NCBI GenBank assembly: GCA_021297895.1
Contig: JAJTHN010000004.1
Span: 1 to 64,000 of the forward strand
DNA length: 64,000 nucleotides
Source of the DNA: Phycisphaeraceae bacterium
Lineage (GTDB): Bacteria > Planctomycetota > Phycisphaerae > Phycisphaerales > UBA1924
Reading direction: 5' to 3'
Shown: positions 59,694 through 60,639 of the stretch, piece by piece
How positions within the stretch are numbered: position 1 is the stretch's first letter
Layout: the number at the start of each line of letters is the position of its first letter
Position numbers and translations under genes: made by a program
Notes under the pieces: generated by a model
What the model was told of the DNA's origin: nothing
Databases searched by the model: none
Seen by the model: only the letters and a program-made list of their open reading frames with translations

Positions 59694-59738
59694 ATCATCG
59701 ATGCGCAACAGCCGGGCAGACTGCTGCGCATCGATGAT
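59694..59738. repeat. 14-bp perfect inverted repeat between convergent genes
   Basis: ATCATCGATGCGCA (59694-59707) and its exact complement TGCGCATCGATGAT (59725-59738) enclose a 17-nt loop. The element sits between the stops of two convergent genes. There is no T tract, so it may act as a bidirectional hairpin terminator or be a repeat element. Confidence 0.6.
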
Positions 59739-59767: not shown

Positions 59768-60449
59768 TCAGTGTGCCGCGCGACGTCGGCGCGCAGCGAA
59801 CGCACCGGCAGCGAGCAGGAGCGACGCGGCCGCGGGCGTGGGCACCAGGGCGGGAGCCTGCGGAACGGTCTGCCACGCCCAGCGCTGGGGCTGATACGAC
59901 AAGCCATCCCAATTCAGAAGAGCCCAGCCAAAGTGGATGCCCGTAAGCAGATTCAGGCGAAGGCCGACGACGACGGAACTGCCCAGAAGCGGGTTGTAAC
60001 CGTTGGGGCCCTGACGCCAGGCGGTGGTTGCTTCGCCGGCAAAGGTCTCACCGCTGCCGCCGACGGACTCGCCGTTGAGGTACCCGCGTGCGATCGTGTA
60101 CGCCGTGCCACCGCCGGGACCGACGCCGACCGTGCTGCCCAGCGCGATGGCCGATGCGCCGCCCCATGAGGCGATGCTGGAATTGGTGATGGTTCCCGAG
60201 CCAAAGGCGAAGCGGTAGTTGTATCGGAAGCCGCTGGCGATCGCGGCACCGGTCTGTGCGGCATTCTGCGTTATGTCGAAAGTGTTGGGCGTGGTGAACA
60301 GCGGCGCACCGTCCAGGGCCCACGTGAAAGTGCCCCCCCTGCCCCTGCTGATACACGACCAAGGCCGCATCCGCGGCCGCGACGGGCGCGAGCAGACCGG
60401 CAAGCGTGACGACACCCATCGACGCAACGCGAACAGAACGAACGTTCAT
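59768..60449 (-). pseudogene. PEP-CTERM-like exported protein, frameshifted at a C7 tract
   Basis: The gene reads in two frames. The N-terminal frame starts at ATG 60449 with a signal peptide (SMGVVTLAGLLAPVAAADA) and LVVYQQGQGG. The second frame carries TFTWALDGAPLFTTPNTFDI, a beta-rich domain (TAYTIARGYLNGESVGG), and the C-terminal anchor VPTPAAASLLLAAGAFAA followed by RRRR. That anchor is a PEP-CTERM-like sorting signal with VPTP in place of VPEP. The switch occurs at a run of seven G (C7 at 60333-60339 on the plus strand). Six would restore one 226-residue frame. It could be true decay, phase variation or a sequencing error. The function is unknown. Confidence 0.75.
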
Positions 60450-60613
60450 GAGTACTCCCTTCTTCCTCGTGCTATGTGCGTGCGACGGCGTATCGCACGG
60501 CGGATGGAGAGAACCACCCGCAGAGAAGGACAATCTAACCGAGGCTCGGATGAACGCAAAGGGCTTCTTCGCGAAATCTGTTGGTTTCCCGGCGAGAGGC
60601 TCGAAAATGACAA

Positions 60614-60639
60614 GCCCCCGGCGTTCGTGCGCCGGGGGC
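60614..60639 (-). terminator. Intrinsic terminator of the aminotransferase gene
   Basis: A perfect 10-bp stem GCCCCCGGCG / CGCCGGGGGC with a 6-nt loop. Read on the minus strand it is followed by TTGTCATTTT, about 50 bp after the stop of the DegT gene. Confidence 0.7.

What the first reader, a model, noticed from the sequence alone, without database searches (positions are those of the whole stretch)
60333..60339. Homopolymer frameshift in a PEP-CTERM-like surface protein
A run of seven C splits the gene; six would restore a complete signal-peptide-to-anchor protein. Poly-G/C tracts of this length in surface genes are classical phase-variation sites.
Basis: partly seen in the sequence, partly recalled or inferred. 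Interest (0 to 1): 0.55.

Follow-up and report, generated by a model that had tools for sequence, protein, structure and literature searches.

The report
Frameshifted surface-protein gene, probably inactivated
A run of seven C's really does knock a gene for a probable secreted, membrane-anchored protein out of frame in this bacterial genome, but the evidence points to an ordinary one-base mutation in a large gene family rather than to a dedicated on/off switch.

Summary
Window 60333-60339 is C7, read as G7 in a minus-strand gene: Shine-Dalgarno, ATG at 60449, signal peptide, tract, then a body and VPTP...RRRR tail in another frame, ending at 59768. Open homologs in related genomes cross the junction in one frame, so both halves are one gene. 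The tail looks PEP-CTERM-like but scores below the TIGR02595 cut-off.

Phase variation is not supported. G/C runs of 7 or more fit second-order Markov expectation. The tract is absent at this site from 11 of 11 homologs examined. MutS and MutL are present. In a 797-kb sample, 1 of 42 exact 7-tracts sits at a frame switch. Of 47 tail genes found, 5 are interrupted, two by in-frame stops and one as a short remnant, which looks like gene decay.

Best reading: a recent slippage indel inactivated one member of a large family. Phase variation and consensus error stay open: no reads and no second genome of the genus were available. A C6 tract is phase-variable in Bordetella bvgS (PMC1891110), so length alone does not exclude switching.

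The parts
60455..60466 (-). Shine-Dalgarno-like GGAAGAAGGGAG, 5 nt before the ATG
   Evidence: Read
60340..60449 (-). First half of the gene: ATG, signal peptide (MNVRSVRVASMGVVTLAGLLAPVAAADA) and the start of the mature part, up to the tract
   Evidence: signal peptide judged by eye and by alignment with homologs
60333..60339 (-). G7 on the coding strand (C7 on +): the point of frame change
59768..60332 (-). Second half of the gene in the other frame: body domain and VPTP-hydrophobic-RRRR tail, stop at 59768-59770
59780..59848 (-). PEP-CTERM-like tail LVPTPAAASLLLAAGAFAARRRR
   Evidence: E 6.5e-10 against a model built from own-genome tails that includes this one; TIGR02595 10.1 bits, below the cut-off of 16
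59694..59738 (-). Terminator-like hairpin about 30 nt after the stop codon
   Evidence: consensus match only; 2 found in the stretch, 0.8 expected in shuffles
60614..60639 (-). Terminator-like hairpin after the upstream aminotransferase-like gene, setting this gene apart as its own unit
   Evidence: consensus match only

Best explanation
The gene encodes a secreted, PEP-CTERM-like anchored protein, one of at least 47 such tail genes in this planctomycete-like genome. A one-base length change in a run of G, most likely replication slippage from six to seven, put everything after the first 37 codons out of frame. The cell carrying this sequence would make a 133-aa product with no body or anchor, so the gene is off. 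This looks like a recent loss-of-function change, fixed or carried by part of the population, in a family whose members are often lost, and not a dedicated switch. Shown: the tract, the two frames, the one-frame homologs, the open remainder of the gene and the other interrupted family members. Inferred: slippage as the cause, recency, and loss of function.
For: Homologs cover both halves in one frame. From VV to the aligned W the target has 13 residues without my junction X (VVYQQGQGGTFTW), as have L009, L011 and L013 (for example VVSFDNSDGVFAW); L025 and L016 have 12. The rest of the gene is open with family motifs kept and has a terminator-like hairpin. Run lengths fit chance. In 797 kb the scan flagged 1 of 42 tracts of exactly 7 (this one), 4 of 193 of exactly 6 and 0 of 16 of 8 or more; of the four sixes only L048:15975 lies inside one gene by my reading. 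Of 47 tail genes 5 are interrupted: this one; C32:65660 (frame change at a C6/C5 stretch and a damaged start); C32:29783 (in-frame TAA after the signal peptide); C17:15305 (in-frame TAG); C71:56293 (37-aa remnant). In another tail gene (C2:1157) a G7 lies inside one open frame that holds both signal peptide and tail.
Against: No reads and no second genome of the genus were available (one search held only this one), so the frameshift could be a consensus error or a minority allele. The body frame changes of both frameshifted tail genes lie at G/C tracts, which slow phase variation would also give. A C6 tract is phase-variable in Bordetella bvgS (PMC1891110). Apart from the one base the gene shows no decay, so a reversible state cannot be ruled out.
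Confidence: 0.57

Rival explanations
1. Phase variation: the G tract gains and loses bases by slipped-strand mispairing, switching the surface protein on and off in a population.
For: A G/C run of 7 early in a surface-protein gene, exactly at the frame change; a second tail gene is out of frame at a C6/C5 stretch; a C6 tract is phase-variable in B. pertussis bvgS (PMC1891110).
Against: No clear excess of long runs (8 or more, 11 observed, 8.5 +/- 2.5 expected). All 11 runs of 8 or more in 397 kb are called noncoding, and 15 of 16 in 797 kb have no clear coding context. No tract at this site in 11 of 11 homologs. MutS and MutL are present. Two other tail genes are broken by in-frame stops and one is a remnant. 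Most classical G/C switches are longer.
Confidence: 0.17
2. Consensus or assembly error: the true sequence has six, and the gene is intact.
For: The sequence is an 84-contig assembly, and homopolymer length is a common consensus error (general knowledge). An HD-domain gene at L048 about 10137 also looks frameshifted away from any tract of 5 or more, so some consensus indels may exist.
Against: All six other exact 7-tracts with a clear coding context in 797 kb are in frame. The four other unexplained same-strand frame switches flagged in the 64-kb window are gene borders by translation. In-frame stops in sister genes are not homopolymer errors.
Confidence: 0.22
3. Programmed recoding: transcript slippage or +1 ribosomal frameshifting on GGG GGG C joins the two frames.
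For: A homopolymer at the frame change.
Against: The site is not conserved: homologs have no tract there and need no shift. PMC3711429 (passages) lists a conserved site as a feature of programmed frameshifts, and says that transcript-slippage sites often are homopolymers of eight or longer or two shorter ones, usually of A or T.
Confidence: 0.03

Closest known systems
Frameshift pseudogenes (GeneTack classes 'pseudogene / hypothetical pseudogene', PMC3711429, passages)
   Same: Single frame change, site not conserved, open homologs elsewhere
   Different: Only one base out of register, with no other decay seen, so it could be very recent or polymorphic
bvgS C6 tract, Bordetella pertussis (cited in PMC1891110 section 6)
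   Same: Short C tract in a gene of a high-GC genome
   Different: There the tract is reported as phase-variable; here there is one sequence and no evidence of variation
Campylobacter G-tract contingency genes (PMC8355987, passages)
   Same: G/C tract; on/off by frame
   Different: Tracts there are mainly G9-G10, in several genes; here a single G7 in a genome with no clear excess of long runs
PEP-CTERM/exosortase surface proteins (TIGR02595, PF07589, PF09721)
   Same: Signal peptide, short C-terminal proline motif, hydrophobic helix and arginine cluster; at least 47 tail genes and one exosortase gene in the genome
   Different: This tail reads VPTP, scores below the TIGR02595 cut-off and drew no PF07589 match

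Membership tests
PEP-CTERM sorting-signal proteins | C-terminal match to TIGR02595 at or above cut-off (16 bits) | tested here: not met
   10.1 bits; no PF07589 match reported. Two homologs, L010 and L025, reach 19.0 and 17.7 bits on TIGR02595 but stay below the PF07589 cut-off (15.3 and 17.3 against 20.7)
PEP-CTERM sorting-signal proteins | N-terminal signal peptide in the same gene | tested here: met
   MNVRSV...AAADA, aligned with homologs, judged by eye; in this sequence it is out of frame with the tail
PEP-CTERM sorting-signal proteins | Exosortase encoded in the genome | tested here: met
   PF09721 149.4 bits, one locus C33:46829-47602
PEP-CTERM sorting-signal proteins | Many tail proteins per genome | tested here: met
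   48 tail-model matches at E<=1, 47 after dropping C10:39747, which lacks the arginine cluster; 150 of 203 first-look candidates were scored, so 47 is a lower bound
Phase-variable (contingency) locus | Repeat at the frame change | tested here: met
   G7
Phase-variable (contingency) locus | Length variation within the species or population | not testable with these tools
   No reads; the only genome held in the genus is this one; genome-contig scans found nothing
Phase-variable (contingency) locus | Tract longer or more frequent than base composition predicts | tested here: not met
   At least 7: 31 observed, 40.3 expected; at least 8: 11 and 8.5; at least 9: 2 and 1.9
Phase-variable (contingency) locus | Tract kept at the same site in related genes | tested here: not met
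   Longest run 2-4 at the site in 11 of 11 homologs; elsewhere in their open frames 3 of 11 (L009, L012, L015) have G/C runs of 6 or 7
Programmed frameshift | Conserved slippery site with the frame change in homologs | tested here: not met
   Homologs are in one frame without a tract at the site

The most novel reading that the evidence does not exclude
A slow, short-tract contingency system in a planctomycete: short G/C tracts in a few of the 47 or more PEP-CTERM-like genes (this one and C32:65660) let the population vary which surface proteins it displays.
Probability: 0.12. Interest if true: 0.5.

Novelty: new member of a known kind. Interest (0 to 1): 0.14.

Why it matters
If it were phase variation it would bring homopolymer contingency loci to PEP-CTERM surface proteins of an environmental planctomycete. 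My full-text searches for 'PEP-CTERM' with 'phase variation' (4 papers listed, none opened), for 'phase variation', 'Planctomycetes' and 'homopolymer' (3 papers, one consulted by passages) and for 'PEP-CTERM' with 'frameshift' (0 papers) showed no report of this in what I saw. As it stands, it is an example of turnover in a large surface-protein family, and a caution: an automated caller might name the second half alone from a TTG start without a signal peptide (inference).

Tried and rejected
Looked for same-species or congeneric copies to compare tract length: none in genome contigs or viral contigs (the tool warns that records of this genome or very near ones may be left out), and only this genome in the genus. 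The best homologs are 33-39% identical over the matched part, too far for a tract-length comparison within a species. Considered an internal start (TTG 60427) giving the second half alone: rejected because the homologs carry the signal peptide found in the other frame and I saw no Shine-Dalgarno there. Considered a mutator background: MutS and MutL are both found (MutS is above its cut-off in NF003810 and just below in TIGR01070, on a locus cut at its N-terminal end; MutL is above the cut-off of TIGR00585 and below those of several narrower models). My first frame-switch script found no switch because its penalties favoured passing through noncoding; it was corrected. That scan still missed the target, because the first 37 codons are short, so the two-sided local score was used. 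I translated the 16 switches flagged: by eye 14 are gene borders or unclear non-shifts and two look like real frameshifts (L048 about 10137 and about 15967). Rows dropped: C10:39747 from the tail census; L026 and L021 (poorly aligned) from the tract check. C14:138 first looked broken and was read as intact. The sample is not random: the stretches on C32, C57 and C79 were chosen because they hold tail genes, C32:65660 among them, so the two true homopolymer shifts cannot be turned into an enrichment claim.

Full report
What is there. Window 60333-60339 is CCCCCCC. The gene lies on the minus strand. It has GGAAGAAGGGAG five bases before an ATG at 60449, a signal peptide, and VVYQQGQ before the tract. 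As written, the frame then continues out of register to a stop at 60048 (133 aa). The body and tail are in another frame and end at 59768. Terminator-like hairpins stand on both sides (60639-60614 and 59738-59694), so the gene looks like a unit of its own between an NADH:flavin-oxidoreductase-like gene and a DegT-like aminotransferase (names recalled from the translations, not searched).

Is it one gene? Yes. Of 101 genomes searched with the second half, 28 (the window's own included) have matches at E<=0.01, many of them on the tail alone. Several homologs (L009, L011 and L013 at 33% over 149-180 residues of the query; L010 at 39% over 104) are single open frames with signal peptide, VVxFxN...FxW, LDITL, HYGW and WAYET-like motifs, then an anchor. 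In the alignment of 13 homologous loci the target's first half aligns with their signal peptides and the second half with their bodies. From VV to the aligned W the target has 13 residues, not counting the X that I put at the junction; L009, L011 and L013 also have 13, L025 and L016 have 12. L026, L021 and L029 align poorly and are weak support. The anchor varies: L010 and L025 carry a PEP-CTERM tail above the TIGR02595 cut-off, while L013 carries a GC-type dockerin. No Pfam domain was found for the body.

Is it PEP-CTERM? The target's tail alone scores 10.1 bits against a cut-off of 16, so strict membership is not met. The genome has one exosortase gene and at least 47 tails of this VPxP...RRRR type (150 of 203 first-look candidates scored), so the protein very probably works like a PEP-CTERM protein.

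Is the tract special? No. Whole-genome C7 windows number 345 forward and 282 reverse, overlapping ones counted. In a 397-kb sample, runs of at least 7 number 31 against 40.3 expected under a second-order Markov model, and of at least 8, 11 against 8.5 with a standard deviation of 2.5. At 600 random coding positions the two-sided frame score same frame, 51 unclear and 1 shift; among 31 tracts of at least 7 it calls one shift, the target. Doubling the sample to 797 kb gives, for exact 7-tracts, 6 same frame, 35 unclear, 1 shift; for exact 6-tracts, 59, 130 and 4; for 8 or more, 1, 15 and 0. Of the four 6-tract shifts, I read three as gene edges or non-genic and one (L048:15975, in tail gene C32:65660) as real. 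The homologs carry no tract at the site (11 of 11, longest run 2-4); elsewhere in their open frames three have G/C runs of 6 or 7, one of them a C7 (L012).

What else breaks tail genes here? Five of the 47 found: the target; C32:65660, with a damaged start and a frame change at CCCCCCGTCCCCC; C32:29783, in-frame TAA straight after the signal peptide; C17:15305, in-frame TAG; C71:56293, a 37-aa remnant. Signal peptides of the others were judged by eye and by hydrophobicity. In-frame stops and remnants are not made by homopolymer switching. A frameshift away from any tract was also seen in an HD-domain gene on C32. This mixture fits gene decay, with or without some consensus errors, better than a switch.

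Mechanism. Replication slippage on the G run is the simplest cause. MutS and MutL genes are present, which should keep slippage on a 6-7 tract slow (established knowledge). Slow does not mean never: PMC1891110 section 6 (part 1 of 2 read) names C6 in bvgS as phase-variable while finding that only C/G tracts above 8 exceed chance in Bordetella. PMC8355987 (passages) gives mainly G9 and G10 for C. jejuni. PMC3711429 (passages) gives criteria used for programmed shifts, phase variation and pseudogenes. PMC1569441 (passages) describes PEP-CTERM proteins in Planctomycetes among other groups. Papers that are not named here were seen only as listings.

Verdict. The most likely reading is an ordinary recent indel in a high-turnover surface-protein family (0.57), then consensus error (0.22), phase variation (0.17) and recoding (0.03). 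The species and sequencing platform are not known from any call; 'planctomycete-like' is an inference from the proteins.

Noticed in passing
L048:15660-16275 (-), C32:65660-66275: A second PEP-CTERM-like gene with a damaged start and a frame change at CCCCCCGTCCCCC, beside an integrase-like fragment (name recalled from the translation) and an intact tail gene with a similar upstream region.
   Followed up: partly
L116 (C32:29783-29848) and L121 (C17:15305-15373): Two tail genes interrupted by in-frame stop codons (TAA just after the signal peptide; TAG in the body).
   Followed up: partly
L048:17809-17816: A run of eight C (G8 on the coding strand) about 110 bases upstream of the start of an intact tail gene.
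   Followed up: no
L054:3209-3515: About three copies of a 105-bp repeat holding C7-C8 and TTTGAAC heptamers, in a stretch called noncoding.
   Followed up: no
L050:2759-2771: A run of 13 G in a stretch called noncoding, the longest in the first 397-kb sample.
   Followed up: no
L048 about 10137 (C32 about 60136): An HD-domain gene that appears frameshifted with no homopolymer of five or more nearby.
   Followed up: partly
L013 and L010/L025: The same body domain is followed by a GC-type dockerin in one genome and by a PEP-CTERM tail in others: the anchor seems to be exchanged.
   Followed up: no
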